A stretch of DNA of 43,009 bases from Gemmatimonadaceae bacterium (lineage in GTDB: Bacteria; Gemmatimonadota; Gemmatimonadetes; Gemmatimonadales; Gemmatimonadaceae), in contig JANWIK010000047.1 in assembly GCA_025449955.1 (NCBI GenBank), forward strand, positions 1 to 43,009, read 5' to 3'. A model generated the notes under the pieces. It did not search any database and had not been told where the DNA came from. It worked only from the letters and a program-made list of their open reading frames with translations. The translations under genes and the position numbers were made by a program. Of this stretch, positions 472 through 42,990 are shown one piece after another (position 1 is the stretch's first letter; every line of letters begins with the position of its first letter).

Positions 472-2577
472 ATGCGGGAGTACAGCAGCTCGGAGATCCG
501 CAACGTGGCAGTCGTCGGACATGGAGCGAGCGGGAAGACCACTCTGGTCGACGCGCTCGCTTTTGTTTCAGGATCCAGCAAGCGCCACGGATCGGTGCGC
601 GATGGTACGGCACTCACCGATTTCGCGCCCGAGGAGACGGAGCGGAAGTACTCGATCAACCTGGGCTGCGCGTATGCGGAGTGGATGGACGCGAAGATCA
701 ATCTGATCGACGCACCGGGCTATCTCGATTTCCACGGTGACGCCATTTCCGCGTTAGCCGCGGCCGACGGCGCGCTCGTCGTCGTGAGCGCAACGGCAGG
801 CGTCGAAGTGGGAACGGAGAAGATGTTCCGTCAGGCCGTCGAGCGGAAAGACCCGGTGCTATTCGTGGTGTCGCTGCTCGACAAGGAGAACGCGAGCTTC
901 GACCGCGTCTACGAGTCGATCAAGAGTCGCCTAACGACAAAGGTCATTCCAGTCGAGATTCCGATAGGCGAGGGCGTGGACTTCACCGGCATCATCAACT
1001 TGTTCTCTCGCAAGCTGCACAGCTACAAGAAGGGCACGAAATCCGGCGAGTACGACGAAGTGGACGTCCCCGAGGATCATCGGGCTCAATTCGATCGCTA
1101 CTATCAGGAATTGATCGAGACGATCGCTGCCACCGACGACTCGATGCTCGAGCGTTATCTCGAGGGACAAGAGATCTCGCGCGAGGAAGCGATCGCGGCG
1201 ATGAAGGAAGGCATGAAGCAAGGCGCGCTGTTCCCGCTCTTCTGCGTATCGGCGGAGCTGACCTACGGCACGCGCGCGCTCCTCACGAAGATCGTCGAGC
1301 TCATGCCATCGGCGTACGAGATGGAGGAGCTGCACGCGTTCACCGGCGCCGTTGGCGACCGCACGACCGAGATTCACGCGCGCGACGACCAGCCGTTCAC
1401 GGCGTCGGTGTTCAAGACGCTGACCGAGCCGCACGTCGGCGACGTCTCGTTCTTCCGCATTTTTTCCGGCGCGGTGGCAAACGGACAGGAAGTGTTCAAC
1501 GCGAGCCGCAACATCGCAGAGAAGCTCGGGCACCTGAGCGTGTCGCAAGGCAAGGATCGGACAGAGGTCCCGCGATTGCACGCCGGCGACATCGGGTGCG
1601 TGGCCAAGCTCAAGAACACGCACACGAACGACACGTTGTCGACGCGCGAGCAGCCGATCCGCCTGCCCGACATCCGTCTCCCCGAACCGTTAGTCACGTT
1701 CGCGGTCCACGCGAGCGCGCGCGGCGACGAAGAGAAGGTGCAACAAGGGCTGCATCGATTGCACGACGAGGATCCGACGTTCTCGACGCACTATGATCCG
1801 GAGACACACGAAACGATCGTGTCCGGCGTGGGCGAGCGTCACCTCGAAGTGTCGATGGCGAAGCTCAAGCGGAAGTTCGGCGTCACGGCCGAGCTCACGA
1901 AGCCGCGTATCGCGTATCGCGAGACGATCAGAGGAAAGGGCGAGGGACAAGGGCGGCACAAGAAGCAGACGGGTGGCCGCGGTCAGTTCGGCGATTGCTG
2001 GGTGCGGCTCATGCCGCTACCGCGCGGCGAAGGCTATGTGTTCGATGATCAGATCGTCGGCGGCGCCATTCCGTCCAAGTTCATTCCGGCGGTCGACAAG
2101 GGAATCCAGGAAGCGGCGGCTCGCGGCGTGATGGCAGGGTATCCCATGGTCGACTTCAAGGTCGAGTGCTTCGACGGCTCGTACCATTCGGTCGACTCGA
2201 ACGAAATGTCGTTCAAGATGTCGGGCATCCTGGCGTTCCGCGTGGTGGCGCCCAAGTGCAAGCCGGTGCTGCTCGAGCCGTTAGACGAAGTGGAAGTGCG
2301 GACTCCGGACGGCTATCTGGGCGACGTGATGGGCGACATTTCGGCGCGGCGTGGACAGATCCTCGGCACGCTGCCGTCACCCGATGGGTTAGGAACGACG
2401 GTGAAGGCGGTGGTCCCGCAAGCCGAAATGCATCTGTACGCGACGCACCTCAATTCGATGACGCACGGGTACGCGACGTTCACGCGTCGCTTCCGTGGCT
2501 ATGAGGAGGTTCCGGCCGAGGCGGCGCAGCGCATCATTGCCGACGCCGCCAAGCCGGAGGAACTGGTCGAGGCGTAA
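472..2577 (+). CDS. EF-G-like translational GTPase paralog (FusA2 type)
   Basis: A 701-residue protein with the EF-G architecture: an N-terminal GTPase domain followed by the beta-barrel and domains III-V (a RGQFGD-type domain IV segment, then a C-terminal RRGxI region). The P-loop is GHGASGKTT (residues 16-24) and the G3 motif is DAPGYLDF (80-87). These are the divergent forms typical of EF-G paralogs rather than canonical EF-G (AHIDAGKTT, DTPGHVDF). The guanine-specificity motif NKxD is replaced by SLLD (134-137). The start at 472 is chosen because GGAGG (461-465) precedes it at ideal spacing; an upstream in-frame GTG at 442 lacks such a site. In other bacteria such paralogs are not the main translocase. 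A role in ribosome rescue, recycling or stress is inference. Confidence 0.85.
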   Translation: MREYSSSEIRNVAVVGHGASGKTTLVDALAFVSGSSKRHGSVRDGTALTDFAPEETERKYSINLGCAYAEWMDAKINLIDAPGYLDFHGDAISALAAADGALVVVSATAGVEVGTEKMFRQAVERKDPVLFVVSLLDKENASFDRVYESIKSRLTTKVIPVEIPIGEGVDFTGIINLFSRKLHSYKKGTKSGEYDEVDVPEDHRAQFDRYYQELIETIAATDDSMLERYLEGQEISREEAIAAMKEGMKQGALFPLFCVSAELTYGTRALLTKIVELMPSAYEMEELHAFTGAVGDRTTEIHARDDQPFTASVFKTLTEPHVGDVSFFRIFSGAVANGQEVFNASRNIAEKLGHLSVSQGKDRTEVPRLHAGDIGCVAKLKNTHTNDTLSTREQPIRLPDIRLPEPLVTFAVHASARGDEEKVQQGLHRLHDEDPTFSTHYDPETHETIVSGVGERHLEVSMAKLKRKFGVTAELTKPRIAYRETIRGKGEGQGRHKKQTGGRGQFGDCWVRLMPLPRGEGYVFDDQIVGGAIPSKFIPAVDKGIQEAAARGVMAGYPMVDFKVECFDGSYHSVDSNEMSFKMSGILAFRVVAPKCKPVLLEPLDEVEVRTPDGYLGDVMGDISARRGQILGTLPSPDGLGTTVKAVVPQAEMHLYATHLNSMTHGYATFTRRFRGYEEVPAEAAQRIIADAAKPEELVEA

Positions 2578-2602
2578 GGCGCAGCCCGCTGGCTGCGCCT
2601 TA
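2575..2602. terminator. Bidirectional hairpin between convergent fusA2-like and kamA genes
   Basis: Perfect 12-bp inverted repeat (TAAGGCGCAGCC, four-base loop CGCT, then its reverse complement). It begins in the stop codon of the EF-G-like gene and ends eight bases from the stop of the convergent kamA. There is only a short T run, so it is a terminator-like hairpin without a classic U-tract. Its symmetry would let it serve both genes. Confidence 0.65.
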
Positions 2603-2609
2603 CGGCGCG

Positions 2610-3782
2610 TCATCCGTTGACGGACTTCCGACGCCGCGCCGTGTGCTTCCGGCGCGACGTTTTTCCGATCTCGATCGGCACGATATCGGGCGAGTCCGCA
2701 TCGGCCGCACACCCGTCGACCGGAACCGGAATTCGCGGCTGCTTGTAGACGAAGCGCTTGCCCTCGTAGTTCCGGAACACGACTTCGTCGTCCGTGATCT
2801 CCTCGACGTACTCGGGGAGCAACGGAACCTTTCCGCCGCCTCCGGGCGAGTCGATCACGAAATGCGGTACGGCGAGACCCGATGTCCATCCGCGCAGCGC
2901 CTTCACGATTTCCAACCCCTTCTGCACGGTGGTCCGGAAGTGTTCGCCGCCGGCCACCTGGTCGGCCATGTAGATGTAGTACGGCCGCACGCGCGCCTTG
3001 AGCAGCTGCTGCATCAGCTCCTTCATCACGTTCACATCGTCGTTCACGCCGCGCAGGAGCACGGTCTGGCAGCCTAACGGAACGCCGGCATCGGCCAGAC
3101 GGCCGAGGGCTTCCACCACTTTGGGTGTGAGCTCGCGCGGGTGGTTGAAGTGGGTATTCATGTACACGGGATGGTACTTGCGCACCATCTCGCAGAACTC
3201 CGGCGTGATGCGCTCGGGCAGGTGCGACGTGACGCGGCTTCCGATGCGGATGATCTCCACATGCGGAATGGCGCGAAGGTTCTGCAGCAGGTACTCGAGG
3301 CGCCGGTCGGACAGCATCATGGGATCGCCGCCGCTCATGATGACGTCGCGGATCTCGGAGTGCGCGCGAATGTACGCGAACGCCGACTCGTATTGATTGA
3401 GCGGAATCTTCTCGGGATCGCCGACCTTGCGCCGTCGCGTGCAGAAGCGGCAGTAGGACGCGCAGACCGGACTCACGAGGAAGAGGACGCGATCCGGGTA
3501 GCGGTGCGTGATGTTGGGCACCGGCGAGTCGGCGTCTTCATCGAGCGAGTCGATGATGCCGTCGTGGATGTCGAGCTCCTGCACCGTCGGGACGTACTGA
3601 TTCCACATTGGGTCGCCGACGGCGGTGATTTGCTCGAGCGCGGCCGGCGTGATGCGCATCTGGAAGTTGTCGAACGCCGGTTTGAGCGCCTCTACATCAA
3701 TGACGTCGCGGCCGAATCGATCGGCCAAGTGCTCCAGGGTGGCGATGCTGTCTTCCTTCAGGATGCGTTGCCACTCACTCAT
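2610..3782 (-). CDS. kamA: Lysine 2,3-aminomutase (radical SAM, PLP-dependent)
   Basis: A 390-residue member of the KamA family, which interconverts L-alpha-lysine and L-beta-lysine using S-adenosylmethionine, a 4Fe-4S cluster and PLP. The radical SAM motif CxxxCxxC is C107-C111-C114 (CASYCRFC). The PLP lysine is K318 in SPGGGGK. The two aspartates that hold the lysine side-chain amine in the clostridial enzyme (D293, D330) are present as D274 (YMADQ) and D311 (VIDSPG). This supports lysine rather than glutamate as substrate. The length and retained motifs argue against a short EF-P-modifying EpmB. It is the last gene of a minus-strand group with two ATP-grasp ligases, separated from them by an unusually long 339-bp gap. 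It lacks a convincing close ribosome-binding site (GGGGAG lies ten bases upstream). Confidence 0.9.
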   Translation of the reverse strand: MSEWQRILKEDSIATLEHLADRFGRDVIDVEALKPAFDNFQMRITPAALEQITAVGDPMWNQYVPTVQELDIHDGIIDSLDEDADSPVPNITHRYPDRVLFLVSPVCASYCRFCTRRRKVGDPEKIPLNQYESAFAYIRAHSEIRDVIMSGGDPMMLSDRRLEYLLQNLRAIPHVEIIRIGSRVTSHLPERITPEFCEMVRKYHPVYMNTHFNHPRELTPKVVEALGRLADAGVPLGCQTVLLRGVNDDVNVMKELMQQLLKARVRPYYIYMADQVAGGEHFRTTVQKGLEIVKALRGWTSGLAVPHFVIDSPGGGGKVPLLPEYVEEITDDEVVFRNYEGKRFVYKQPRIPVPVDGCAADADSPDIVPIEIGKTSRRKHTARRRKSVNG

Positions 3783-9119: not shown

Positions 9120-10013
9120 CTAGAGGCCGAGGTCGTTGACGCGCGGCGGGTCGACGGTGTAGTCGTAGAAGCCCTTTCCCGACTTGCGGCCGTACATGCC
9201 GGCCAGCACCATGCGCTTGAGCAGCGGCGGCGGCGCATACCGCTTCTCGCGATACTCGTCGAACATGATCTCGGCGATCTTGTACGTCGTGTCGAGGCCG
9301 ACGAAGTCGAGCAGCGTGAACGGCCCCATGGGGTATCCGGTGCCGAGCATCATGCCTTTGTCGATATCTTCGACGCTGGCTACGCCGTGCTCGAGCGCGT
9401 TGATCGCATCCACCAGGTACGGCACGAGCAGCAAGTTCACGACGAAGCCCGAATTGTCCTTGGCGGCGATGGGCTCCTTGCCTAACTGGCGGGCGAACGC
9501 GTAGGCGGCGTCGAAGGTGGCATCGCTCGTGGTCACGGTGCGCACCACCTCGACGAGTTTCATGACGGGCACCGGGTTGAAGAAGTGGAGGCCCACCATC
9601 TGCCCAGGTCGCGTGGTGGCCGCCGCCATTGCGGCAATCGTCAGGCTGGATGTGTTCGAGGCGAAGATCGAGTGCGCCGGGCACAGGCCGTCCAGCTCCT
9701 TCCACATCGCGTTCTTCACTTCGATGTCTTCGACCACGGCCTCGATGACGATGTCGCAGTCCGCGAGGTCGCGAAGATTGCTGGTGAAGGAGAGGCGGCC
9801 CATCGCCGCATCGCGGTCGGCTTCGGTGACCTTGCCTTTGCTCTTTTCGATGGCGCGGGCGAAGCTCTTCTCGATGTTGGCCTTGCCGCGCTGGCCCAAA
9901 GCGTCGGACACCTCGCGCACCTTCGTGGTGAATCCGCTCTGCGCGCACACCTGCGCAATGCCGGAACCCATGAGTCCGGCGCCGAGGACGCCGACGGTCT
10001 TGATGTTTGTCAT
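9120..10013 (-). CDS. hbd: 3-hydroxybutyryl-CoA / 3-hydroxyacyl-CoA dehydrogenase
   Basis: A 297-residue, single-function NAD(P)-dependent dehydrogenase that interconverts acetoacetyl-CoA and 3-hydroxybutyryl-CoA. The N-terminal Rossmann motif is GAGLMGSG (11-18). The catalytic His143 lies in GLHFFNPVPVMKLVEV, paired with Glu155 as in the family, and SNTSSL precedes it. The C-terminal domain has GTGYPMGPFTLLDFVGLD and the KSGKGFYDY end. The length matches clostridial-type Hbd/PaaH. A thiolase gene lies 2 kb upstream on the same strand, so acetoacetyl-CoA could flow between the two in fatty-acid oxidation, butyrate or polyhydroxybutyrate metabolism (inference). Confidence 0.93.
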   Translation of the reverse strand: MTNIKTVGVLGAGLMGSGIAQVCAQSGFTTKVREVSDALGQRGKANIEKSFARAIEKSKGKVTEADRDAAMGRLSFTSNLRDLADCDIVIEAVVEDIEVKNAMWKELDGLCPAHSIFASNTSSLTIAAMAAATTRPGQMVGLHFFNPVPVMKLVEVVRTVTTSDATFDAAYAFARQLGKEPIAAKDNSGFVVNLLLVPYLVDAINALEHGVASVEDIDKGMMLGTGYPMGPFTLLDFVGLDTTYKIAEIMFDEYREKRYAPPPLLKRMVLAGMYGRKSGKGFYDYTVDPPRVNDLGL

Positions 10014-12075: not shown

Positions 12076-13284
12076 TCACACAAATGCCTCGATGATCACA
12101 GCGATTCCCTGTCCACCGCCAATGCACGCAGAACCGAGTCCGTAGCGTTTGCCGGCGGCCCGCAACGCATGGATCAGATGCGCCGTGATCCGCGCTCCCG
12201 ATGCGGCCAATGGATGGCTGAGCGCGATGGCTCCGCCGTGGACGTTGAACTTCTCGCGCGGGATTTTGAGCTCTCTCTCGACCGCGCACACCTGGGGCGC
12301 GAACGCTTCGTTGACTTCGATCAAGTCCATGTCATCCAGCGACATGGCCGCCTTACGGAGCGCGATTTTCGTGGCGGGCACGGGGCCGATGCCCATGATC
12401 GTCGGGTCGACGCCGGCCACACCCCAAGCCACCAGCCGCGCAAGCGGCTTCTTGCCGTTCTTGGTCGCCCAATCTGCGCTGCTCACGACGAGAGCGCCCG
12501 CGCCGTCGCCGATGCCCGACGCATTGCCGGCCGTCACTACGCCGTCCGCCTTGAACACGGGCTTGAGGCGCGCCAGCCCCTCGAGGGTGGTGTCCGGACG
12601 CATGTGCTCGTCGCGGCGGAACTGTTCGACCTGGCGTGTCTTGGGATTCTTCACTGGAATCGCGATCACTTCCTCGTCGAATACACCTGACGCCCACGCA
12701 TCGCGGGCCGTTTGCTGCGAGCGCAGCGCGTATTCATCTACACATCCACGGTCGAGATGATACTGGCCCGCCAGTTTCTCGGCGGTCTCGGCCATGGCCA
12801 AGCCGGCGACCGGATCCTTGAGTCCTTCCCACAACGAGTCCTCGAGCGGCGGCATCTTGCCCAACTGTAGGCCCCACCGGAGGCCGCGTGCGATGTGCGG
12901 CGCCTGCGACATCGACTCGCCGCCGCCCACCAAGCACAATTCGGATTCGCCTAACAGAATCTCCTCGGCGCCGTTCACCACGGCTTGGAATCCGGATCCG
13001 CATAGGCGGTTTACCGTGAGCCCCGGCGTCTCGTTGGGGCATCCGGCGCGCAGCGCAACGTGTCGGGCGAAATAGATCGTATCCGACGTCGTCTGCATCA
13101 CGTTGCCGAAAATCGAATGCTGGATCGCGCTGGGCTCGACGCCGGCGCGCTGCATGGCCGCCGTCGCCGCATGCACCGTCAGATCGATCGCGCTCAAATC
13201 CTTGAATGCACCGCCGAACGTGCCGAAGGGTGTGCGGACGGCGGACAAGAAAACGACATCACGGGCTTGGCCCTGGGTTTTCAC
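12076..13284 (-). CDS. Acetyl-CoA C-acetyltransferase / 3-ketoacyl-CoA thiolase
   Basis: A 402-residue thiolase. The nucleophile is C95 in NRLCGSGFQ. The NEAFAPQ motif, the catalytic H357 (ALSHPLAASG) and C387 (SACIGGGQG) are all present. It either condenses two acetyl-CoA to acetoacetyl-CoA or cleaves 3-ketoacyl-CoA. Sequence alone does not decide which; the Ser-His-Pro-Leu form of the third motif, instead of the usual Gly-His-Pro-x-Gly, is a small deviation. It starts with GTG preceded by GGAG at good spacing. It lies on the same strand as hbd, with the lipoprotein and two-TM genes between them. Confidence 0.92.
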   Translation of the reverse strand: MKTQGQARDVVFLSAVRTPFGTFGGAFKDLSAIDLTVHAATAAMQRAGVEPSAIQHSIFGNVMQTTSDTIYFARHVALRAGCPNETPGLTVNRLCGSGFQAVVNGAEEILLGESELCLVGGGESMSQAPHIARGLRWGLQLGKMPPLEDSLWEGLKDPVAGLAMAETAEKLAGQYHLDRGCVDEYALRSQQTARDAWASGVFDEEVIAIPVKNPKTRQVEQFRRDEHMRPDTTLEGLARLKPVFKADGVVTAGNASGIGDGAGALVVSSADWATKNGKKPLARLVAWGVAGVDPTIMGIGPVPATKIALRKAAMSLDDMDLIEVNEAFAPQVCAVERELKIPREKFNVHGGAIALSHPLAASGARITAHLIHALRAAGKRYGLGSACIGGGQGIAVIIEAFV

Positions 13285-16228: not shown

Positions 16229-16251
16229 GCGTTAGGCGACGCGCCGCGCCG

Positions 16252-23361: not shown

Positions 23362-23616
23362 ATGAGGAGTGCGCTCCCTGTCGGGCAGTGAGGTGACGCA
23401 GCGTGTGTGAAGTCGCGGGCAACGAAAGGTCGGACCGTGGGCTGCGGAGGGGCGCGACGCCATCCGTCCGAGCCGTTGGGTTAGGCGCCGGTAAGTATAT
23501 GATTTCACGTCAACTACGCAAGTCGTTCGTCCGGCAAACTCTACGTCGTAGCCGCTCGCGAACCGTCCACGATCTGCCGCGTACTATCGCCTTTTTAGCA
23601 ACAAAATAGCGTCTCT

Positions 23617-28454: not shown

Positions 28455-28475
28455 TGCCTAACCAGGGAACAGGGA

Positions 28476-29877: not shown

Positions 29878-30924
29878 GTGCGAGCACTCACCATCTCGGC
29901 GCATGGAGGACTCGACCGTCTCGAGGTGTGCGAGGACTTGCCCACGCCGGAGTTGCGCACGAGCACCGACGTTCGCGTTCGCGTGCGCGCGGCGGCGCTC
30001 AACCGTCTCGACCTGTTCGTGCTCGAGGGCTTGCCTGGAATAACCATCACGCCGGATTGGGTCGTCGGTTCCGATGGTGCCGGCGTCGTGGATGCGGTTG
30101 GTGCGGACGTGCGCGACGTCGCCGTTGGCGATCGGGTGCTCATCCAACCGGGGATCAGCGACCGGACGTGCGAGTATTGTCGTGCCGGCGAGCAATCGCT
30201 CTGCGTGTCGTACAAAATTCTGGGCGAGCACATGCCGGGAACCTGCGCCGAATTCGTGGTGGTTCCCGCGTTCAACGTGCGTCGGATTGCGTCGTCGGTG
30301 CGGTGGGAGGTGGCGGCCGCGTTGCCATTGGCGGCGCTCACGGCATGGCGCATGATCGTGACGCGGGCGGCGGTGCGCGAAGGCGATCTGGTCTTGATCT
30401 GGGGTATCGGGGGCGGCGTGGCGTTGGCGGCGCTGCAGATCGCGAAGCTGCACGGCGCGCGCGTGTGGGTGACGTCGGGGAGCGACGCGAAGCTCGAGCG
30501 GGCGCTCGGGTTAGGCGCGGACGCGGCGTTCAACCACCGCACGCAGGACGTGCCGCGCGAGGTGCGCGCCCGCACCAGCAAGCGCGGGGCCGACGTGGTC
30601 GTCGACACGGTAGGGCAGGCGACGTGGGCGCACTCGCTGCTTGCGTTAGGCAAGCGCGGCCGGCTCGTGACGTGCGGCGCGACGAGCGGTCCCATGGTCG
30701 AGACCGATGTGCGCCGCCTCTTCTGGAATCAGTGGTCGATCCTGGGGTCGACCATGGGGAACGATCGCGAGCTCGACGCGATGGTAGGCGCATTCGAGCG
30801 CGGCCATCTCGCTCCGGTGGTCGATTCGGTGCATTCGCTCGAGCAAGGCCGTGCGGCGTACGAGCGTCTCGCGTCGCCGGAACACTTCGGCAAGGTGGTG
30901 CTGCGCGTGGGCGGAGACGACTGA
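29878..30924 (+). CDS. MDR superfamily zinc-type alcohol dehydrogenase / quinone oxidoreductase-like
   Basis: 348 residues. The N-terminal GroES-like fold (AALNRLDLFVLEG, VGSDGAGVVDAVGADV) contains a CxxC...C cluster (TCEYCRAGEQSLC) like part of the structural zinc lobe of alcohol dehydrogenases. A Rossmann domain with WGIGGGVALAALQIAKLHGARV follows. NAD(P)H-dependent oxidoreductase of unknown substrate. It starts with GTG without a ribosome-binding site. One base after its stop begins the thioesterase gene, so it heads a short operon. Confidence 0.85.
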   Translation: MRALTISAHGGLDRLEVCEDLPTPELRTSTDVRVRVRAAALNRLDLFVLEGLPGITITPDWVVGSDGAGVVDAVGADVRDVAVGDRVLIQPGISDRTCEYCRAGEQSLCVSYKILGEHMPGTCAEFVVVPAFNVRRIASSVRWEVAAALPLAALTAWRMIVTRAAVREGDLVLIWGIGGGVALAALQIAKLHGARVWVTSGSDAKLERALGLGADAAFNHRTQDVPREVRARTSKRGADVVVDTVGQATWAHSLLALGKRGRLVTCGATSGPMVETDVRRLFWNQWSILGSTMGNDRELDAMVGAFERGHLAPVVDSVHSLEQGRAAYERLASPEHFGKVVLRVGGDD

Positions 30925-31306: not shown

Positions 31307-31839
31307 CGCGCGTCGAGGAGCTGATCGTCGTGCCGGCGGCGCCCGCGCAGGCCATGCGTGCGCTGCTCACCGTGGCGCGCGCCCGCGAATGGATGGCGCC
31401 CGATGTTCATCTCGTGACGCGCACGACGGCTCCTGCGTTAGGCGCGGGCGATCGCTTCGCGCTGGAGCTGTTCGGCGGCATGCGCTTCGAGTACGTGGTG
31501 GAAGCGACCAGCGATCGCGAGGTGGCGCTGTCGTACGACGGCCCGTGGCGTGGGCAGGAACGATGGAGCTTCGTGGCCGACGGCGCCGAGACGTTGGTCC
31601 GGCGGTCGTACGAGGTCGAGGGCGGATCGCCGCTGGCGGCGTTGGCGTGGGGCACCGTTGGGCACGCGATCGTCGCGCTGCACATGCGCTTCGAGCTGTC
31701 GCGATTCCGCTCGGCCATCCAGAACGATCCGGGGCCCCGCGGCGAAATCGAGGCGACGTCGGGTGCGATGCGGTCCACGCCGCTCACGCAGGCGGACAAC
31801 ACGCGGGCTGGGCCGGACTTCCCGGTGGATGATGGCTGA
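31303..31839 (+). CDS. SRPBCC (START/Bet v1-like) family protein
   Basis: 178 residues. The N-terminal VEELIVVPAAPAQAMRALLTVARAREWM, central GDRFALELFGGMRFEYVV and C-terminal long helix (ALHMRFELSRFRSAI) follow the helix-grip pattern of polyketide cyclase/dehydrase-like proteins. It should bind a hydrophobic ligand; no catalytic residues are evident. It overlaps the thioesterase stop by four bases and the following mini zinc ribbon by eight. A disordered tail of about 35 residues ends the protein. Confidence 0.75.
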   Translation: MTRVEELIVVPAAPAQAMRALLTVARAREWMAPDVHLVTRTTAPALGAGDRFALELFGGMRFEYVVEATSDREVALSYDGPWRGQERWSFVADGAETLVRRSYEVEGGSPLAALAWGTVGHAIVALHMRFELSRFRSAIQNDPGPRGEIEATSGAMRSTPLTQADNTRAGPDFPVDDG

Positions 31840-32103: not shown

Positions 32104-33009
32104 ATGGACACGGGGACACCGATTGCGTTTCTCGGCTTGGGCGCTATGGGGAAGCCGATGGCGGGCCGTCTCGTGGACGCCGGCTATCTGGTGACGGCGT
32201 GGAATCGAACGGCGGGTCGCGCTGATGAGCTGATCAAGCGGGGCGCGCGCGTGGCGGACAGTCCGCGCGACGCAGCGGCGGGCGCGCGCGCCGTGGTGCT
32301 CATGGTCTCGGACCCGGCGGCGGTGTCGGCTGTGTTAGGCGGGGACCGCGGTGTGCTGGCGGTGGCGCGGCCGGGAACGATCGTCGTGAACACATCCACC
32401 GTTGGGCCGGCGGATTCGGCGCGATTCGCCGCGCAGTGCGGCGACAAGAACGTGTCGTACGTCGAATCGCCGGTCATGGGCAGCATCGGCCAGGCCTCGT
32501 CGGGTACGTTGGTCGCGATCGTGAGCGGCGACACGGCGGCGGTGGCCGAGGTGTCGGGGATGTTGCTGGTGGTGGCGAAGCAGATCATCCGGGCGGGCGA
32601 CATTGGAAAGGCGAGCACGCTCAAGCTCGTGATGAATCTGCTCGTGGGCGGGACGATCGAATTGTTGAGCGAGTCGATCGCGGCGGCGAATCGCGCGGGA
32701 CTGCCGCTCGATCTGTTCCGGGAGACGCTCTTGAGCTCCGTGCTCGCGTCGCCGTTCGTGGGCTACAAGTCGCCATTGTTGTTCGAGCGGCGCTACGACT
32801 CGCAATTCAGCACGCGGCTCATGCTCAAGGATCTGGACTTGGTGCTGGCGAGCGCGGAAGAGCACGGGCTCGCGTTGCCGGCGACGGCGGTGATCCGGGA
32901 CCAGTTCGCGCGCGCCGTGGCAGCCGGGTTAGGCGACAGCGATGCGGCATCGGTGCGTGAGGTGATGGACGGCGACGGCGCGGGGTCCCAGACGAGCCGG
33001 TCGGGGTGA
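32104..33009 (+). CDS. 3-hydroxyisobutyrate dehydrogenase-like beta-hydroxyacid dehydrogenase
   Basis: 301 residues. The Rossmann motif is FLGLGAMGKPMAGRL, followed by WNRTAGRA, which in this family suggests NADPH preference through the Arg. The substrate/catalytic segments are the ESPVMGSIGQASSG variant of DAPVSGG and KLVMNLL with the conserved Lys. The substrate could be hydroxyisobutyrate, tartronate semialdehyde or another beta-hydroxy acid, or a succinic semialdehyde-type aldehyde (GLYR-like). An AT-rich TTTGGTAATTTGG just before the ATG may hold the promoter; no Shine-Dalgarno sequence is visible. Confidence 0.85.
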   Translation: MDTGTPIAFLGLGAMGKPMAGRLVDAGYLVTAWNRTAGRADELIKRGARVADSPRDAAAGARAVVLMVSDPAAVSAVLGGDRGVLAVARPGTIVVNTSTVGPADSARFAAQCGDKNVSYVESPVMGSIGQASSGTLVAIVSGDTAAVAEVSGMLLVVAKQIIRAGDIGKASTLKLVMNLLVGGTIELLSESIAAANRAGLPLDLFRETLLSSVLASPFVGYKSPLLFERRYDSQFSTRLMLKDLDLVLASAEEHGLALPATAVIRDQFARAVAAGLGDSDAASVREVMDGDGAGSQTSRSG

Positions 33010-33150: not shown

Positions 33151-35664
<2,514 letters not shown>

Positions 35665-35747: not shown

Positions 35748-36743
35748 ATGACGTCGGTCGCGCCGTCCACCAGCACGCGCCTCGTTAGTCTTGCCGACAT
35801 TCGTGCCGCCGCCTCGGCGCTGCGCGGCGTGGCGGTGCGTACGCCGCTGTTGCCGGCGGACGAGCTCGCCGCGTCGATCGGTCTCGAGGCGGGTTCGCTC
35901 TTCCTGAAGCCCGAGATGCTGCAGCGCGGCGGGGCATTCAAGTTTCGCGGCGCGTACACGTTCCTGGCGCGGCTCACGCCCGAGGCGCGCTCGCGCGGCG
36001 TGGTGGCGCCGTCGTCGGGGAATCACGCGCAAGCGGTGGCGCTGGCGGCGCGTCTCTTCAACGTGCCGGCTACCGTGGTGATGCCGACCACGGTGACGGC
36101 GGCCAAGCGCGCGGGTGCTCAACGGTTAGGCGCGCGGATCGTGCTGGCGGGTACGACGACGGCGGACCGCATGGCGCGCGCGGCCGAGCTCGTGGCGGCC
36201 GAGGGGCTCACGCTGGTCCCGCCGTACGACAACCACACCATCATTGCCGGCCAGGGCACGACGGGCCTCGAGATCGCCGAGGATTTGCCTAACGTCGAGA
36301 CCGTGCTGGTGCCGGTGGGCGGCGGCGGGTTGAGCGCGGGCGTGGCCACGGCGATCAAGTCGTTGGCGCCGCATGCGCGGGTGATCGGCGTCGAACCCGA
36401 GGGCGCGCCCAAGTTGACGCGTGCGCGCGAGCACGGGGCGCCCGTTAGACTGGCGCGCACGGCGGGTCTGGCCGATGGGTTGCTGGCGGTGGAGATCGGG
36501 ACGATCCCGTTCGCGCATCACCAGGCGTACGTGGACGAGGTGGTGCTGGTCGAGGACGACGCGATGCGCGATGCCGTGCGCTATCTGCTGGACCGGCTCA
36601 AGATCGTGGCGGAGCCGAGTGGCGCGATCACGGTGGCGGCGCTCAGGTCGCGGGTGGCGACGCCGCGCGGCGTGACGGTCGCGATCTTGAGCGGCGGGAA
36701 CATGGAGTGGTCTGGGCTCCGCGAGCTGCTGCCGGATGGATAG
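35748..36743 (+). CDS. Threonine dehydratase / serine racemase-like PLP enzyme
   Basis: 331 residues, fold type II PLP enzyme. The PLP lysine is K65 in GGAFKFRGA, the substrate loop is SSGNHAQ, and the phosphate-binding Gly cluster is VGGGGLSAG. It lacks the C-terminal ACT regulatory domain of biosynthetic IlvA. It is thus the short catabolic TdcB/serine-racemase form and probably not inhibited by isoleucine. It deaminates threonine or serine, or racemises serine. It lies 83 bp after gyrA and overlaps the diguanylate cyclase gene by eight bases. Confidence 0.88.
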   Translation: MTSVAPSTSTRLVSLADIRAAASALRGVAVRTPLLPADELAASIGLEAGSLFLKPEMLQRGGAFKFRGAYTFLARLTPEARSRGVVAPSSGNHAQAVALAARLFNVPATVVMPTTVTAAKRAGAQRLGARIVLAGTTTADRMARAAELVAAEGLTLVPPYDNHTIIAGQGTTGLEIAEDLPNVETVLVPVGGGGLSAGVATAIKSLAPHARVIGVEPEGAPKLTRAREHGAPVRLARTAGLADGLLAVEIGTIPFAHHQAYVDEVVLVEDDAMRDAVRYLLDRLKIVAEPSGAITVAALRSRVATPRGVTVAILSGGNMEWSGLRELLPDG

Positions 36744-38207
36744 GGCGCGGATTCTCATCGCCGACGAGGACGACGTCCTCGCGCGCACCATCTCGTGGCT
36801 CCTCAAGGAGCAGGGCTTCGACGTCACGGTGACGTTAGGCGGGGAGCGCGTGCTGGATGCGCTCACGGAGCACGAGCCCGACCTCCTGATGTTCGACGTG
36901 ATGATGCGCGGCGTGGACGGGTACGACCTCCTGCACCGCATCAACGCCGATCCGCGCTGGCGCGACATGCCGGTGCTGGTGGTGTCGGCCATGCCGACGG
37001 ACGAAGCGACGGCCCGGCTCCTGAGCCTGGGGGCGACCGATTTCGTCAGCAAGCCGTTCCACGTGCGCGAGCTGCTGGCGCGCATCCGCATGCAGCTTCG
37101 CGTTAGGCAGGAGCTGCTGCACGCGCGGTCGGCGCTCCGGTCCACGGAAGTGGAGCTGGACCGCGTGCGCCTGGAGGCCGAGAACCGCCGGAAGATCGTC
37201 GACATCCTGCACGAGGTGACGGGCGACTTCTCGTCGGAGGAGCTGTATCACATTCTCGTGCGGCGCGTCGCGCGTGCGTTGGACATCTCGCACTGCTCGC
37301 TCGTGTTGGCGCGGCCGGGAGACCAGGTGGGCGTGGTCGCGGCGGCGTACGAGGCGCCGGGCCTCGCCCATCTCGAGATCCGCCTCGAGCGCTATCCGGA
37401 GATTCGCGCGGCGCTCGAGACCGGTGAGCCGGTGTTGATCGAGGACGTCGATGCGAGCGCGCTCTACAACGACGTGCGCCTCGATTGGGCGGCGGCGGGC
37501 ACGCTCGTGCCGTATCGGTCGGTGGTGGCGCTGCCGTTCCGGCTCGATGGCGAGCAGGCGGGCGTCATCTTCCTGCGCACCCTGTTGGATGAGGCATCGT
37601 TAGGCAGGGCGGACGTCGAATTCGGGGACCAGGTGGTGCGGGCGGCGGTGGCGGCCATTCGCCGGGCGCAGGTGATCGAGTCGACGCGCGCTGACAAGGC
37701 GCGGTTCGAGGTGCTGGCGCTCACCGATCCGCTCACGCAGACGCACAACCGGCGGGCGCTCATGGAGCGACTCACGTCGGAGCTGGAGCGTGCGCGCCGG
37801 TATGCGCTGCACCTGTCGGTGCTCATGGTGGACCTCGATCACTTCAAGGTGATCAACGACTCGTACGGGCACGTGGTGGGCGACGAGGTGCTCCGCGGCG
37901 TGTCGCGCGTGTTGCAGCGCGAGGCGCGCGCGGTGGACGTGGTGGCGCGATTCGGCGGCGAGGAATTCCTGGTCGTACTGCCGGAAACCGGCGAGGAGGG
38001 CGCGGTTGCGTTAGCCGAGCGTATTCGGGCCCGGGTCGAGGAAACGCCGCCGGTGACGGGCGGCGAATACGGGTGGCTTCGGGTGACGGTGAGCATCGGC
38101 GTGGCGACGGTACCATCCACGCGCGTCAACTCGCCCGAGGAATTGATCGCGGTGGCGGACGAAGCGCTCTATCGCGCCAAGGCGCAGGGGCGCAACCGGG
38201 TGTGCTC

Positions 38208-38211: not shown

Positions 38212-39353
<1,142 letters not shown>

Positions 39354-39668: not shown

Positions 39669-40793
39669 ATGCAGCGCTTTGCGGCTTTCGATCCGCCGGA
39701 GTACACGGCGTGGACGCGTGTCGACGCGGACGTGGATGCATTTCGGGAGACGATCGCGCGCGACGCGGCGCGGTCCAAAGTGGTGGACGCGCTCGACCAG
39801 GCGGGCCGGCTGGCGCTCTATCGCGGCCTCGTGCGCAACCGGCTCACGGACGTGGCGCTCAAGCGCATGGTCCGCCAGGGCGTGATTTCCAAGGCGTGGT
39901 TAGGCACGGGCGAAGAGGCGGCCACGATCGGTCCGGTGCACGCGCTCCGGCGGGGCGCGTCGGCCGGTGCGGTGCGCGACGTGGCGGCACCCATGATCCG
40001 GAACGGCGGCGCGTGTCTCGAGATGGGGATGACGGTGGCGGACACGTTGCGCGCGTACATGGGGACGGCTGATGGTCCGTCCCATGGGCGTGACGGCCAT
40101 TACGGCGATCTGGCACAGGGCGTGCTCGCGCCGATCAGTCACGTGGGCGACATCGTGCCGGTGGTGACGGGGGTCGCGCTGTCGTTCCGGCTGCGCCGGC
40201 AGGACGCGGTGGCGATGACGTGGATCGGCGACGGCAGCACGAAGGCCGGCGTGGCGCACGAGGGTCTCAACTTCGCGGCCGTGCAGCGGGCGCCGGTGGT
40301 GTTCATCATCCAGAACAACCAGGTTGCGTTAGGCACGAAGCTCGAGCAGCACCACGTGGCGGCCGGGCACGGGAACTTTGCCGACTGGCCGAAAGCGTAC
40401 GGGATGTGGGGCGGTGTGTTCGACGGCAACAACGTGCTCGATGCGTACGCCGCGGCGACGCTGGCGGTGGCGCGGTGCCGTCGCGGCGAGGGACCGGCGC
40501 TGCTGGTGGCCGAGACGTTCCGGATGGGCGGCCACGCGACGCACGACGAAGCGGAAGCGCGGCACACATTCTCGCCCAGCCTGTTCGCCTCGTGGGGCCG
40601 GCGCGATCCGGTCGCGTTGTACGAGGAATATTTGTGCGACGCCGGCATCGTGCGCTCGCGGCTCGAGGAGATCGCGGCGGATGCGGCGGCCGAAGTGGAG
40701 CGCGGCGAGCAGGAGGCACTGGAGAGCCGCGCGCAGCGCATGCCCGACGGTGCGGGCGCGATCGACGGCGTGTACGCGAAGTCGGCTTACTAA
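39669..40793 (+). CDS. 2-oxoacid dehydrogenase E1 alpha subunit (TPP-dependent)
   Basis: 374 residues. The thiamine diphosphate motif starts with IGDGS (186-190) and ends with QNN (215-217) at standard spacing. LGTGEEAATIGPVHALRRG and the phosphorylation-loop-like MGGHATHDEAE are also typical of PdhA/BkdA alpha chains. It should pair with an E1 beta to decarboxylate pyruvate or a branched 2-oxoacid. No beta gene follows here, which is unusual. The ATG is preceded by GAAGG only one base away, so the exact start is uncertain. It lies downstream of the 211-bp inverted repeat. Confidence 0.88.
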   Translation: MQRFAAFDPPEYTAWTRVDADVDAFRETIARDAARSKVVDALDQAGRLALYRGLVRNRLTDVALKRMVRQGVISKAWLGTGEEAATIGPVHALRRGASAGAVRDVAAPMIRNGGACLEMGMTVADTLRAYMGTADGPSHGRDGHYGDLAQGVLAPISHVGDIVPVVTGVALSFRLRRQDAVAMTWIGDGSTKAGVAHEGLNFAAVQRAPVVFIIQNNQVALGTKLEQHHVAAGHGNFADWPKAYGMWGGVFDGNNVLDAYAAATLAVARCRRGEGPALLVAETFRMGGHATHDEAEARHTFSPSLFASWGRRDPVALYEEYLCDAGIVRSRLEEIAADAAAEVERGEQEALESRAQRMPDGAGAIDGVYAKSAY

Positions 40794-40818: not shown

Positions 40819-41973
40819 ATGCGGCGATCGACGTGCGTGGTGGGTCTCCTGGTGTCGGTCGCGGCCGCGGCCTGCTCGAGTCAGGACCGCAGCGCGTCGC
40901 CCACCTCGCCGATCGACAGCACGTCGGCGGCGCTGACGGGGCAGCTCACGGCAGCCGACGGGTTCACGGTGGCGTACTTCGCGCGCAACCTGCCCGGTGT
41001 GCGGTTCATGGCGTTAGGCGCCGACGGCGCGGTCTACGCCAGCGAGCCGGCGGCCGGGAAGGTGGTGCGCGTGTGGGATGTCGACGGCGATGGGGTGGCC
41101 GACAGCGTGGCCACGGCGGTGAGCGGCCTCGATCGCCCGCACGGCCTCGCGTTCCACGGCGGATATCTCTACATCGCGAACACGGGCGGCGTCGTGCGCG
41201 TTCGGTTAGGCCGCGACGGCCGCGCGACCGGGCCGGCGGAATCCCTCAACCAGTACGACGGCGGCGGCGGGCATTGGACGCGAACCATCGTGTTCGGCGC
41301 CGACAGCATGATGTACGTGTCGATCGGCTCGACGTGCAATTTGTGCATCGAGACGGTGCCCGAGCGTGCGTCGGTGATGCGGTACGATGCGAACGGGCAG
41401 AACGGCGTGCGATTCGCGTGGGGGTTGCGCAACGCGGTCGGCATGGCGGTGGATCCGGCGACGCACGCACTCTGGGTTTCGCAGAACGAGCGGGACAACC
41501 TGACGCCGGACCACCAGAACCTGCCGCCGGACGAGATCAACATTCTGCACGATGGCGGCGACTACGGCTGGCCGTACTGCTACACGGATCACGGGAAGGC
41601 CGTGCCCAATCCGGAGTACCACGACCAAGCGCGCTGCGACCCGACCATCCCGGCGGCTCTCGAGCTGCAGGCCCACTCGGCTCCGTTAGGCATGGTGTTT
41701 TTGGCGACCGCGACGGGGTTCCCGGAGTCGTATCGGGGCGATCTCCTGGTGGTGTTTCACGGCTCGTGGGACCGGGACGTCCCGACCGGCGCCAAGGTGG
41801 TGCGCGTGCACGTGGCGAACGGCGTGCCGGTGTCGTATGAAGATTTCGTGGCGGGCTGGCAGCGGGCCGATGGGAGCCGGTGGGGACGTCCGGTGGACGT
41901 CATGGTGTACCGGGACGGGTCCGTGCTGGTGAGCGACGATCAGGCCGGCGCCATCTACCGCGTGTCGCGTTGA
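40819..41973 (+). CDS. Sorbosone/glucose dehydrogenase-like beta-propeller lipoprotein
   Basis: 384 residues from the ATG at 40819, with GGAGGGG four bases upstream. The signal peptide MRRSTCVVGLLVSVAAAAC ends in a lipobox (AAAC). The mature part shows GDH/sorbosone-type propeller landmarks: PHGLAFHGGYLYIANTGGV, MYVSIGSTC, FAWGLRNAVGMAVDP, NERDNLTPDHQNLPPDEIN, YGWPYCY and GSWDR. Members use PQQ or are of unknown activity. It should be anchored in the periplasm or outer surface and could oxidise sugars. It starts 25 bp after the E1-alpha stop. Confidence 0.88.
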   Translation: MRRSTCVVGLLVSVAAAACSSQDRSASPTSPIDSTSAALTGQLTAADGFTVAYFARNLPGVRFMALGADGAVYASEPAAGKVVRVWDVDGDGVADSVATAVSGLDRPHGLAFHGGYLYIANTGGVVRVRLGRDGRATGPAESLNQYDGGGGHWTRTIVFGADSMMYVSIGSTCNLCIETVPERASVMRYDANGQNGVRFAWGLRNAVGMAVDPATHALWVSQNERDNLTPDHQNLPPDEINILHDGGDYGWPYCYTDHGKAVPNPEYHDQARCDPTIPAALELQAHSAPLGMVFLATATGFPESYRGDLLVVFHGSWDRDVPTGAKVVRVHVANGVPVSYEDFVAGWQRADGSRWGRPVDVMVYRDGSVLVSDDQAGAIYRVSR

Positions 41974-42015
41974 TCGGGGCGTTACAATCGCCGGAATCGT
42001 CGCGTCCCTAAGTAC

Positions 42016-42990
42016 GTGAGACATCCCGCCTTTCGCACGGTCTTGGTGGTCGGCGCGCTGTGGGCAGCCGCCCTCGCGGCGCCGGTGCGCGCACAGGAGG
42101 ACGCGGTCATCGCGCACGCGGACACGCTGCTCATCGCGGGGCGCGTGTTCTCCGCCGAATCGTTGTATTATCGCGCCGTGCGGATGGACTCGCACGACCC
42201 GGCGGCGCGCCTTGCGTTAGGCAAGTACCTCGCGGCGCGCGGCGCGCTGCGGGTGGGCGCGGTGCTGATGGAGGAAGCGCGCTACTTCGGCGCCGACCAG
42301 GCCCAAGTGGCGCGGGCGCTGGCGCCGGTGTACGAGGCGCTGGGCGATTACGCGGCGCTCGCCTCGCTGCCGGCGTCGCCGCTGCCGTACGCCGAACGCG
42401 CGCGGGCCGAGTGGTTAGGCGCGCATCCGCCGGCGACGGCGGGCCCCGATTCGGCGCGCGCCGACTATCGCGTGAGCGACAGCCATCTGCTCGGGCAGGT
42501 GGTGCTCCGGTTAGGCGCGGACAGCGTCGTGGCGGCCATCGACGCGCGGGTGCACGGTCTCGTGCTCGACCCGTCGTGGATGGACCGGCGCGAAATCCGG
42601 CGCTTCGCATCGCGCGGCGCTCGCGGCCCGGCCGACGTGGCGGGCGTCGCACTCGCCGTTCGGTTGGGCGCGTTCACCCTCACCAACGTGCCGGTGCGCT
42701 TCGAGGTGCAGCACGCGCGCGACGGTGCGGTGTTGGGCCTCGACGTGCTGGCGGCGCTGGCGCCGACGTTCGATCCCGTGGACGGGCACATGCTGCTCCG
42801 GCGATCCGGGGTCGTGGCGGCGAACACGCCCGGATTCCGCATTCCGACGTTGGTCACGGATCGGGGCGTGTTCGTCGTCAAGACGGAAACGACCTTCCCC
42901 ATCGGCCATCCGGATGTCCAGCAGTACCTCCGGCGGACACCGTGGACGCTCGATGCGCAAAACGGCGAGGTAATCGTCCCGGTCCGTTAG
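42016..42990 (+). CDS. Secreted TPR protein with retropepsin-like domain lacking DTG
   Basis: 324 residues from a GTG. A signal peptide with probable cleavage after VRA (residue 26) is followed by TPR-like helices (about 30-135, LYYRAVRMDSHDPAARLALGKYLAARG). The C-terminal half resembles the single-chain aspartyl protease (retropepsin-like) fold, with the flap/ending pattern AVLGLDVLAALAPTFDPVDGHMLL. The catalytic DTG/DSG is, however, DAR (176-178, AAIDARVHGLVLD), so protease activity is doubtful. The ribosome-binding site is weak. The last 19 bases of the window after the stop hold nothing. Confidence 0.65.
   Translation: MRHPAFRTVLVVGALWAAALAAPVRAQEDAVIAHADTLLIAGRVFSAESLYYRAVRMDSHDPAARLALGKYLAARGALRVGAVLMEEARYFGADQAQVARALAPVYEALGDYAALASLPASPLPYAERARAEWLGAHPPATAGPDSARADYRVSDSHLLGQVVLRLGADSVVAAIDARVHGLVLDPSWMDRREIRRFASRGARGPADVAGVALAVRLGAFTLTNVPVRFEVQHARDGAVLGLDVLAALAPTFDPVDGHMLLRRSGVVAANTPGFRIPTLVTDRGVFVVKTETTFPIGHPDVQQYLRRTPWTLDAQNGEVIVPVR

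What the first reader, a model, noticed from the sequence alone, without database searches (positions are those of the whole stretch)
929..42516. GTTAGGC/GCCTAAC is about ten-fold over-represented
I count 49 exact copies on the two strands. At about 33% each G and C and 17% each A and T, independent bases predict about five in 43 kb. The density (one per ~880 bp) matches or exceeds that of known DNA uptake sequences (Haemophilus USS is roughly one per 1.2 kb). Candidate explanations are a DNA uptake signal, a methylase site, a repair or recombination signal, or a nucleoid-protein site. I know of no description for this lineage.
Basis: partly seen in the sequence, partly recalled or inferred. 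Interest (0 to 1): 0.8.

Follow-up and report, generated by a model that had tools for sequence, protein, structure and literature searches.

The report
Genome-wide DNA tag in Gemmatimonadaceae
A seven-letter DNA word is repeated thousands of times across the genomes of some soil bacteria of the family Gemmatimonadaceae, in a pattern that resembles the "self" tags by which Haemophilus and Neisseria recognise their own DNA for uptake; whether it works that way has not been tested.

Summary
GTTAGGC/GCCTAAC occurs 49 times here (about 6 expected) and 4,717 times in the 3.2-Mb draft genome of an uncultured Gemmatimonadaceae bacterium, against 721 for the word read backwards. The full word is about 8-10 bp, (TS)CGTTAGGC(R). 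Codon bias cannot make it: it is at least 28-fold in excess in each of the four reading frames that permit it, antisense included, and is in excess between genes. In sampled DNA of cultured Gemmatirosa kalamazoonensis, 144 of 151 TTA leucine codons lie inside it. It is on or off by genus (26 of 179 family genomes, 11 of 35 genera). At orthologous places it is kept about twice as often as control 7-mers. In the window's genus copies avoid each other below about 200 bp, and a 15-kb restriction-modification island in Gemmatirosa lacks it. These resemble the genomic marks of DNA uptake sequences (USS/DUS). I judge an uptake signal most likely (0.6). Uptake, receptor and methylation are untested; competence genes occur with and without the motif; two usual USS/DUS traits (non-coding preference, close inverted pairs) are not met in the own genome. 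The heptamer also equals an integron attC core, which I cannot explain.

The parts
929..935 (-). GTTAGGC copy
   Evidence: exact match; antisense in called gene 472-2577+
3072..3078 (-). GTTAGGC copy
   Evidence: sense TTA-GGC in 2610-3782-
9480..9486 (-). GTTAGGC copy
   Evidence: sense TTA-GGC in 9120-10013-
12949..12955 (-). GTTAGGC copy
   Evidence: sense TTA-GGC in 12076-13284-
14096..14102 (+). GTTAGGC copy
   Evidence: antisense in 13372-14436-
14209..14215 (-). GTTAGGC copy
   Evidence: sense TTA-GGC
14472..14478 (-). GTTAGGC copy
   Evidence: sense TTA-GGC
14727..14733 (-). GTTAGGC copy
   Evidence: sense TTA-GGC
14748..14754 (-). GTTAGGC copy
   Evidence: sense TTA-GGC
16231..16237 (+). 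GTTAGGC copy
   Evidence: intergenic
18554..18560 (-). GTTAGGC copy
   Evidence: sense TTA-GGC
19109..19115 (+). GTTAGGC copy
   Evidence: antisense
19426..19432 (-). GTTAGGC copy
   Evidence: sense TTA-GGC
19807..19813 (-). GTTAGGC copy
   Evidence: sense TTA-GGC
21321..21327 (+). GTTAGGC copy
   Evidence: sense TTA-GGC
22256..22262 (+). GTTAGGC copy
   Evidence: sense TTA-GGC
22478..22484 (-). GTTAGGC copy
   Evidence: antisense
23480..23486 (+). GTTAGGC copy
   Evidence: intergenic
24087..24093 (-). GTTAGGC copy
   Evidence: antisense
24405..24411 (+). GTTAGGC copy
   Evidence: sense TTA-GGC
24803..24809 (+). GTTAGGC copy
   Evidence: sense TTA-GGC
26467..26473 (+). GTTAGGC copy
   Evidence: sense TTA-GGC
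27075..27081 (-). GTTAGGC copy
   Evidence: sense TTA-GGC
27855..27861 (-). GTTAGGC copy
   Evidence: sense TTA-GGC
28456..28462 (-). GTTAGGC copy
   Evidence: intergenic
30510..30516 (+). GTTAGGC copy
   Evidence: sense TTA-GGC
30645..30651 (+). GTTAGGC copy
   Evidence: sense TTA-GGC
31437..31443 (+). GTTAGGC copy
   Evidence: sense TTA-GGC
32334..32340 (+). GTTAGGC copy
   Evidence: sense TTA-GGC
32928..32934 (+). GTTAGGC copy
   Evidence: sense TTA-GGC
33375..33381 (+). GTTAGGC copy (in gyrA)
   Evidence: sense TTA-GGC; gyrA
33594..33600 (-). GTTAGGC copy (in gyrA)
   Evidence: antisense
34261..34267 (+). GTTAGGC copy (in gyrA)
   Evidence: sense GTT-AGG-C frame
36125..36131 (+). GTTAGGC copy
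   Evidence: sense TTA-GGC
36287..36293 (-). GTTAGGC copy
   Evidence: antisense
36834..36840 (+). GTTAGGC copy
   Evidence: sense TTA-GGC
37102..37108 (+). GTTAGGC copy
   Evidence: sense GTT-AGG-C frame
37599..37605 (+). GTTAGGC copy
   Evidence: sense TTA-GGC
38327..38333 (-). GTTAGGC copy
   Evidence: antisense
38723..38729 (+). GTTAGGC copy
   Evidence: sense TTA-GGC
39032..39038 (+). GTTAGGC copy
   Evidence: sense TTA-GGC
39899..39905 (+). GTTAGGC copy
   Evidence: sense TTA-GGC
40328..40334 (+). GTTAGGC copy
   Evidence: sense TTA-GGC
41013..41019 (+). GTTAGGC copy
   Evidence: sense TTA-GGC
41205..41211 (+). GTTAGGC copy
   Evidence: sense TTA-GGC
41685..41691 (+). GTTAGGC copy
   Evidence: sense TTA-GGC
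42216..42222 (+). GTTAGGC copy
   Evidence: sense TTA-GGC
42414..42420 (+). GTTAGGC copy
   Evidence: sense TTA-GGC
42510..42516 (+). GTTAGGC copy
   Evidence: sense TTA-GGC

Best explanation
CGTTAGGC (here GTTAGGC with softer flanks: T favoured at -3, C at -1, A or G after it) is a genome-wide self-recognition tag for natural transformation, working like the USS of Haemophilus and the DUS of Neisseria. Inferred mechanism: a surface type IV pilus or pseudopilus subunit binds the word on free double-stranded DNA; tagged fragments are pulled in (PilQ-like secretin, ComEA-like protein, ComEC, DprA) and recombine. Because tagged alleles are imported more often, recombination keeps restoring the word (molecular drive), so thousands of copies build up where the protein sequence tolerates them. 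Shown here: genome-wide excess, codon independence, both strands, short-range mutual avoidance in the window's genus, maintenance at orthologous places, absence from one defence island, genus-wise distribution. Not shown: binding, uptake, receptor, transformation.
For: Density 1.44/kb in a 320-kb sample of the own genome, 1.14/kb in G004, 0.73/kb in Gemmatirosa, there on the chromosome and on two contigs of about 1 Mb. Strands balanced, 2415:2302. Observed/expected from codon usage with motif codons removed: 266/2.3, 16/0.1, 46/0.7, 81/1.8 in the four permitted frames (all codons kept: 9.4, 0.2, 1.1, 2.8); between genes 36/5.7. Adjacent gaps of 8-100 bp: 19 seen, 57 expected (own); 13 seen, 33 expected (G004); none of the 53 and 63 other words of similar frequency is as low; avoidance ends near 200 bp. 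In H. influenzae a second USS within 100 bp did not detectably raise receptor binding (PMC7811141, passages). Orthologous sites kept 40/65, 14/34, 15/20 against 31%, 23%, 38% of 7-mers with the same G+C count. A motif-free stretch of at least 15.4 kb in Gemmatirosa holds type I R-M and Mrr genes. Enriched in 26 of 179 family genomes, 11 of 35 genera (hand count). Of 13 motif-rich family genomes have both ComEC and DprA.
Against: ComEC and DprA are both found in 18 of 23 motif-free family genomes too, so they do not predict the motif; the own genome (75% complete) shows neither. GspH/FimT-type pilins: 6 of 8 motif-rich, 4 of 8 motif-free genomes. No PilQ hit reached the curated cut-off (35 of 37 genomes match, 0 over it); ComEA-like hits in 53 of 60, 8 over it. 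Copies are denser inside genes than between them in two of three genomes, and gap variation overall is close to random, unlike USS/DUS as described in PMC1626085. In Gemmatirosa the closest copies (7-30 bp) are in excess, 19 against 5.3. Some near-miss words are also in excess, and one of 13 hand-picked control words, GCTCAAG, is about as well conserved as the motif (13/22). I found no paper on transformation in this phylum. G002, placed in the window's genus, has 9 copies.
Confidence: 0.6

Rival explanations
1. Methylation-linked word, like HIP1 of cyanobacteria: an orphan methyltransferase marks CGTTAGGC and a methyl-directed repair bias or a methylation-dependent function creates and keeps the copies.
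For: HIP1 is the closest non-uptake case I looked up of a hugely over-represented word, and it tracks methyltransferases (PMC4390886, passages). The genus-wise on/off distribution would fit gain and loss of an enzyme.
Against: The word is not a palindrome, unlike HIP1. A repair bias gives no obvious reason for copies to avoid each other below about 200 bp in the window's genus. Methylation and the set of methyltransferases were not tested.
Confidence: 0.14
2. Binding site of a nucleoid, segregation or chromosome-organising protein spread over the genome.
For: Spread over three large Gemmatirosa contigs, mutual avoidance in the window's genus, maintenance across species.
Against: Mainly some genera of one family carry it; at about one copy per kb it is far denser than the segregation or terminus sites I recall. 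A 2007 paper argues against compaction for USS/DUS because they are not evenly enough spaced (PMC1939737, passages), and overall gap variation here is near random too.
Confidence: 0.12
3. Chi-like recombination hot spot read by RecBCD/AddAB during break repair.
For: Over-represented, non-palindromic and maintained.
Against: No mirrored strand bias along the Gemmatirosa chromosome: 82:56 in the first nine samples, 37:40 in the next seven; strand split given gene direction is homogeneous (chi2 21.7 for 16 samples, p 0.12). Mutual avoidance is not expected.
Confidence: 0.07
4. Integron-related: GTTAGGC is a form of the attC/attI core (GTTRRRY, recalled), so the copies are landing or recombination sites of the integron integrase.
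For: Four attC-like hairpins on a Gemmatirosa plasmid, three of them ending GCCTAACG...CGTTAGGC; IntI over the cut-off in 33 of 60 genomes.
Against: IntI over the cut-off in 8 of 13 motif-rich and 16 of 23 motif-free family genomes (my reading). Genome copies are not attC pairs: spacings of 60-150 bp are depleted to 0.19-0.62 in the own genome. attC-like sites with the same core exist in G051, whose genome lacks the excess. Other GTTRRRY words such as GTTAGGT and GTTAAGC are not in excess.
Confidence: 0.04
5. Codon-pair or translational bias (Leu-Gly, rare TTA codon).
For: 266 of 460 copies sit in the sense TTA-GGC frame; 266 of 352 TTA codons are in the motif.
Confidence: 0.01

Closest known systems
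Uptake signal sequence (USS) of Pasteurellaceae, AAGTGCGGT
   Same: About one copy per kb, both strands, no orientation bias, core of about 9 bp, shared within a family, largest gap at a genomic island (PMC1626085 and PMC7811141, passages)
   Different: Different word, distant phylum (Gemmatimonadota), no AT-rich flanking tracts seen within 8 bp, denser inside genes in two of three genomes, no experimental uptake
DNA uptake sequence (DUS) of Neisseriaceae, ATGCCGTCTGAA, receptor ComP
   Same: Thousands of copies, short core with softer flanks, clade-specific occurrence
   Different: No ComP-like receptor identified; closely spaced inverted pairs not in excess; among genera the variation is mainly on/off with nearly the same core
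HIP1 of cyanobacteria, GCGATCGC
   Same: Very large genome-wide excess, low or absent in some relatives
   Different: HIP1 is a palindrome tied to methyltransferases (PMC4390886, passages); here non-palindromic, methylation unknown
Integron attC core site GTTRRRY (recalled)
   Same: Same heptamer; attC-like ends in these bacteria read GCCTAACG...CGTTAGGC
   Different: Genome copies lack the paired spacing, and the excess does not follow IntI

Membership tests
USS/DUS (DNA uptake sequences) | Short word at roughly one copy per kb genome-wide | tested here: met
   4,717 in 3.2 Mb; 1.44, 1.14 and 0.73 per kb in samples of three genomes
USS/DUS (DNA uptake sequences) | No orientation bias | tested here: met
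   2415:2302; 2588:2560 in Gemmatirosa; local strand split agrees with gene sense
USS/DUS (DNA uptake sequences) | Many more perfect than singly mismatched copies | tested here: inconclusive
   Own sample: 460 perfect, 706 in the 21 single variants together, but expected 60 and 610, so the excess is mostly perfect copies; GTTGGGC 251/76 and GTAAGGC 20/3.3 are in excess (sums by hand). Gemmatirosa CGTTAGGC: 296 perfect, 383 in 24 variants; CGTTGGGC 63/12.7, CGTCAGGC 59/24, TGTTAGGC 18/5.0 in excess
USS/DUS (DNA uptake sequences) | More regular spacing than random | tested here: inconclusive
   Gaps of 8-100 bp cut to 0.33 and 0.40 of expectation, but overall CV near random (1.03 against 1.01; 1.00 against 1.06; Gemmatirosa 0.93 against 1.03), and in Gemmatirosa the closest pairs are in excess
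USS/DUS (DNA uptake sequences) | Preferentially in non-coding DNA, some close inverted pairs | tested here: not met
   Intergenic 1.06 against coding 1.48/kb (own), 0.92 against 1.19 (G004), but 0.98 against 0.70 (Gemmatirosa); pairs within 60 bp depleted in the first two, and in Gemmatirosa mostly same-strand. A usual property, not the definition
USS/DUS (DNA uptake sequences) | Shared within a clade, with dialects | tested here: met
   11 of 35 genera of the family; core CGTTAGGC with flank differences
USS/DUS (DNA uptake sequences) | Competence machinery in the genome | tested here: inconclusive
   ComEC and DprA in 12 of 13 motif-rich and 18 of 23 motif-free family genomes; own draft has a PilQ-like and a weak ComEA-like hit but no ComEC or DprA
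USS/DUS (DNA uptake sequences) | Sequence-specific uptake of tagged DNA | not testable with these tools
   Needs an uptake or transformation assay
USS/DUS (DNA uptake sequences) | Cognate receptor (ComP or ComN type minor pilin) | tested here: inconclusive
   GspH/FimT-type pilins in 10 of 16 genomes, not tracking the motif
HIP1-type methylation word | Palindrome | tested here: not met
   GTTAGGC is not its own reverse complement (sequence)
HIP1-type methylation word | Cognate methyltransferase and modification | not testable with these tools
   No methylation data; methyltransferase sets were not searched
Chi site | Orientation follows replication | tested here: inconclusive
   No mirrored bias in 16 samples of 20 kb of the Gemmatirosa chromosome; origin not mapped
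Integron attC | Paired core sites enclosing a hairpin | tested here: not met
   Pair spacings of 60-150 bp depleted in the own genome; hairpins were not folded there

The most novel reading that the evidence does not exclude
The uptake tag and the integron recombination core are the same word, so that a gene cassette carries self-labels for DNA uptake at both ends of its attC site: motif-rich Gemmatimonadaceae would preferentially import cassettes, and uptake specificity may have arisen by co-opting the attC core. attC-like sites with this core also occur in a relative without the genome-wide tag, so the attC use would be the older one.
Probability: 0.1. Interest if true: 0.92.

Novelty: new variant of a known kind. 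Interest (0 to 1): 0.8.

Why it matters
The papers I saw in passages describe genomic uptake sequences in two families, Pasteurellaceae and Neisseriaceae (PMC5031613, PMC7811141), and one says they were not known in other transformable bacteria as of 2006 (PMC1626085). A further, independent case in Gemmatimonadota would show that this kind of bacterial mate recognition evolves repeatedly, would give a test of the molecular-drive model with on/off contrasts between related genera, and can be tested at once in a cultured organism, Gemmatirosa kalamazoonensis, which carries about 5,100 copies. It might also help to get DNA into members of this group.

Tried and rejected
Codon-pair bias: rejected. 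Integron sites as source of the genome copies: disfavoured. Chi-like strand bias: not seen. Another dialect in motif-free genera: in 80-140 kb samples of five genomes (words present in at least 60% of the stretches only) most top words are weak; the strongest, CACAGAG in G027 (26 against 2.2), proved to be clustered repeats, 22 of 26 outside called genes, so I do not count it as a dialect. At least one stretch of up to 20 kb from each of 35 relatives was also screened; three of these were all N and dropped, and three more were under 6 kb. Active avoidance of the word in motif-free genomes: not supported, the Markov expectation there is already 0.2-1.0 per sample. Competence genes or GspH/FimT pilins as predictors: no association. 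A receptor was not sought by structure, and methyltransferases were not compared. A paper search for GTTAGGC as a string gave 1,522 papers; the 20 listed are largely primer or unrelated texts and were not opened. One search failed on a file name and was repeated. Gene calls are from my own simple codon-model caller, not a standard program.

Tallies by motif status are hand counts, with motif-rich meaning at least 1.5 times the reversed word. G041 in a third family passes but was not checked for cassette arrays. In the control-word test the printed 54 and 64 words include the motif itself, so the controls are 53 and 63. In one search the two strands report the same hairpins twice: the printed 6 and 4 are 4 distinct sites in L186 and 2 in L145; the other eight loci scanned gave none, the one around the Gemmatirosa integrase included.
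Full report
What was claimed and what is there. The window holds 49 exact copies of GTTAGGC/GCCTAAC, 30 on the + strand and 19 on the - strand, between 929 and 42516. Independent bases predict 4.9; simulated third-order Markov sequences gave 5.8 on average and at most 14 in 100 runs. Among 7-mers with at least 15 copies it has the highest third-order z-score; against a fifth-order model it does not stand out, since its own sub-words set that expectation. Copies are uneven: 4 in the first 13 kb and 45 in the rest; I have no explanation for the thin stretch.

Genome-wide. The window is one contig of a draft genome of 3.20 Mb in 225 contigs, estimated 75% complete. The assembly has 2,415 + 2,302 copies against 345 + 376 of the same word read backwards. 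In 320 kb of it there are 460 copies against 59.7 expected. The GyrA in the window is 92-96% identical to that of two Gemmatimonadaceae/Gemmatimonadetes metagenome assemblies, so I take the organism to belong to that family. The ten window proteins I identified are mostly housekeeping ones such as GyrA, EF-G and dihydrolipoyl dehydrogenase.

The real motif is longer. The strongest 10-mers in the own genome are TGCGTTAGGC (66 against 1.3 expected) and TCCGTTAGGC (49 against 1.0). In Gemmatirosa 296 of 323 copies have C before the heptamer, and A or G is favoured after it. GTTGGGC is a weaker second form (251 against 76), above expectation in all six frames. Of the other single-base variants GTAAGGC is also in excess (20 against 3.3); the rest are near or below expectation.

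It is not codon bias. The remaining two frames would contain a stop codon. Between genes there are 36 against 5.7. 266 of 352 TTA leucine codons are in the motif; in 440 kb of Gemmatirosa it is 144 of 151, out of 13,223 leucine codons.

Who has it. One genome with a strong excess, G021, is Gemmatirosa kalamazoonensis: a 20-kb stretch of its third contig is 100.0% identical to plasmid record NZ_CP007129. It has 2,588 + 2,560 copies against 314 reversed, on the 5.3-Mb contig and on both contigs of about 1 Mb. In the family, 26 of 179 genomes have at least 1.5 times as many CGTTAGGC as reversed words, in 11 of 35 genera; in ten of those genera every genome searched is enriched (four of them are represented by a single genome), and in the window's genus five of six (hand count). 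The exception, G002, has 9 GTTAGGC and a GyrA 86% identical to the window's. Outside the family, 7 genomes pass among about 255 in a phylum-wide draw of 395: five of six members of one genus and one of another genus in a second family, and one in a third (hand count). Samples of five motif-free genera show no other genome-wide word of this kind: the strongest, CACAGAG in G027, is a clustered repeat largely outside genes. A GyrA tree of 43 rows puts the motif-bearing rows into three well-supported clades that also hold rows with few or no copies, so repeated loss from an ancestral state, or repeated gain of the same word, must be assumed; I cannot tell which. That tree scores each row by the one contig carrying gyrA, so low-density rows may be misjudged; two were left as ambiguous.

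It is maintained. In orthologous DNA the word is kept at 40 of 65 places in G004 (81.5% nucleotide identity), 14 of 34 in G001 and 15 of 20 in G003, against 31%, 23% and 38% of 7-mers with the same G+C count (one-sided binomial p 3e-7, 0.015 and 8e-4; the three comparisons share sites). Among 13 single control words, GCTCAAG was about as well kept (13 of 22, 5 of 11, 6 of 12) and several others were low, with small numbers. Sites that changed are single-step variants less often than controls: 5 of 23 in G004 against 52% (p 0.003), 4 of 17 in G001 against 44% (p 0.07), 1 of 4 in G003, not tested.

Copies avoid each other in the window's genus. Adjacent gaps of 8-100 bp number 19 against 57 expected in the own genome and 13 against 33 in G004; none of 53 and 63 other words of similar frequency is as low. 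The avoidance fades by about 200 bp. The overall coefficient of variation of gaps is close to random. Gemmatirosa differs: the closest class (7-30 bp) is in excess, 19 against 5.3, while 100-150 bp is at 0.08 of expectation; part of the excess is a 12-bp tandem repeat in L187.

A defence island lacks it. The longest motif-free stretch in 440 kb of Gemmatirosa is 15.4 kb, running to the end of the sampled piece, where 11 copies were expected. Eight of its twelve called proteins were searched (genes listed): type I restriction, specificity and methylation subunits, an Mrr-type nuclease, a kinase, a PIN/TPR protein, and two without a hit. One protein each from two shorter deserts gave a PglZ-domain response regulator and an HlyD-type membrane-fusion protein. 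The samples of the two 1-Mb contigs, by contrast, carry the word. In H. influenzae the largest USS gap likewise lay at a strain-specific genomic island (PMC7811141, passages).

How it most likely works. The features listed for USS and DUS in PMC1626085 (passages) are about one copy per kb, no orientation bias, somewhat regular spacing, unusually strict consensus, family-wide sharing, some close inverted pairs, and a preference for non-coding DNA. Here density, orientation and sharing are met; strictness is only partly met (460 perfect copies against 706 of all single variants, but 60 and 610 expected, sums by hand); spacing is met only at short range in one genus; the last two are not met in the own genome. 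Avoidance below 200 bp fits an uptake tag, since a second tag on the same short fragment adds little (PMC7811141, passages). I therefore infer a surface receptor, uptake bias and molecular drive. Machinery: ComEC in 55 and DprA in 54 of 60 genomes (own included), PilQ-like secretins in 35 of 37, none over the curated cut-off, ComEA-like proteins in 53 of 60, 8 over the cut-off. Both ComEC and DprA are found in 12 of 13 motif-rich and 18 of 23 motif-free family genomes (hand count). The one motif-rich genome without them is the own draft, perhaps through incompleteness, since the four motif-rich genus-mates have both (one DprA hit is a fragment). The motif-free G002 has ComEC but no DprA hit.

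Integron coincidence. GTTAGGC is a form of the attC core GTTRRRY (recalled). In a 20-kb stretch of the Gemmatirosa plasmid I found four distinct attC-like hairpins of 97-98 bp, three with ends GCCTAACG...CGTTAGGC and one with CGTTAGAC, and two with the same heptamer in G051, which lacks the genome-wide excess; eight other loci gave none. Integron integrases above the cut-off are in 33 of 60 genomes: 8 of 13 motif-rich and 16 of 23 motif-free ones of the family, the rest outside it (hand count). The genome copies do not show attC spacing, but the identity of the two words is unexplained.

What is known in print. A search for uptake signal sequence with Gemmatimonad gave no paper; Gemmatimonad with natural transformation and competence gave five, none on the subject by title (listing only); a general search on uptake sequences gave ten, of which I opened two for this point, in passages; a last search showed no paper naming Gemmatirosa among the eight listed of 1,612. 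Campylobacter, where a methylated word is said to mark DNA for uptake (recalled), came up only as a listing. These searches cover only open-licence papers. Within that limit I found no description of this motif.

Verdict.

Noticed in passing
L186 (G021:C3:800001-820000), 14175-14272, 15476-15572, 17684-17780, 18486-18583: Four attC-like hairpins on a Gemmatirosa plasmid, three of whose ends match the genome-wide word: an integron cassette cluster about 40 kb from an integrase gene.
   Followed up: partly
L176 4646-20000: Motif-free stretch with HsdR, HsdS, HsdM, Mrr nuclease, kinase and a TPR/PIN protein: a defence island.
   Followed up: partly
window 3079-9479: 6.4 kb without any copy, and only 4 copies in the first 13 kb; cause unknown.
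   Followed up: no
window and own-genome sample: The palindrome CTCGAG is also over-represented (128 against 73 in the window, 800 against 506 in 320 kb), mostly in one codon frame.
   Followed up: no
L236-L240 and L045 (G025): A second word, AGGGGCTAG (13 against 0.1 expected), in genus g21; 11 of 13 copies lie outside called genes, often clustered.
   Followed up: partly
L257, L259, L047 (G027): Clustered intergenic repeats built on CACAGAG(G), often as inverted groups.
   Followed up: partly
L028 (G008:C1:1-20000): About 31 copies of a repeat containing CCATTGAAG, perhaps a CRISPR array.
   Followed up: no
G002 (GyrA 86% identical to the window's): Placed in the window's genus but has only 9 copies and no DprA hit in an 88%-complete draft, a natural contrast to relatives with thousands.
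   Followed up: partly
L187 8118-8172: 12-bp tandem repeats holding the word or a one-base variant in Gemmatirosa.
   Followed up: no
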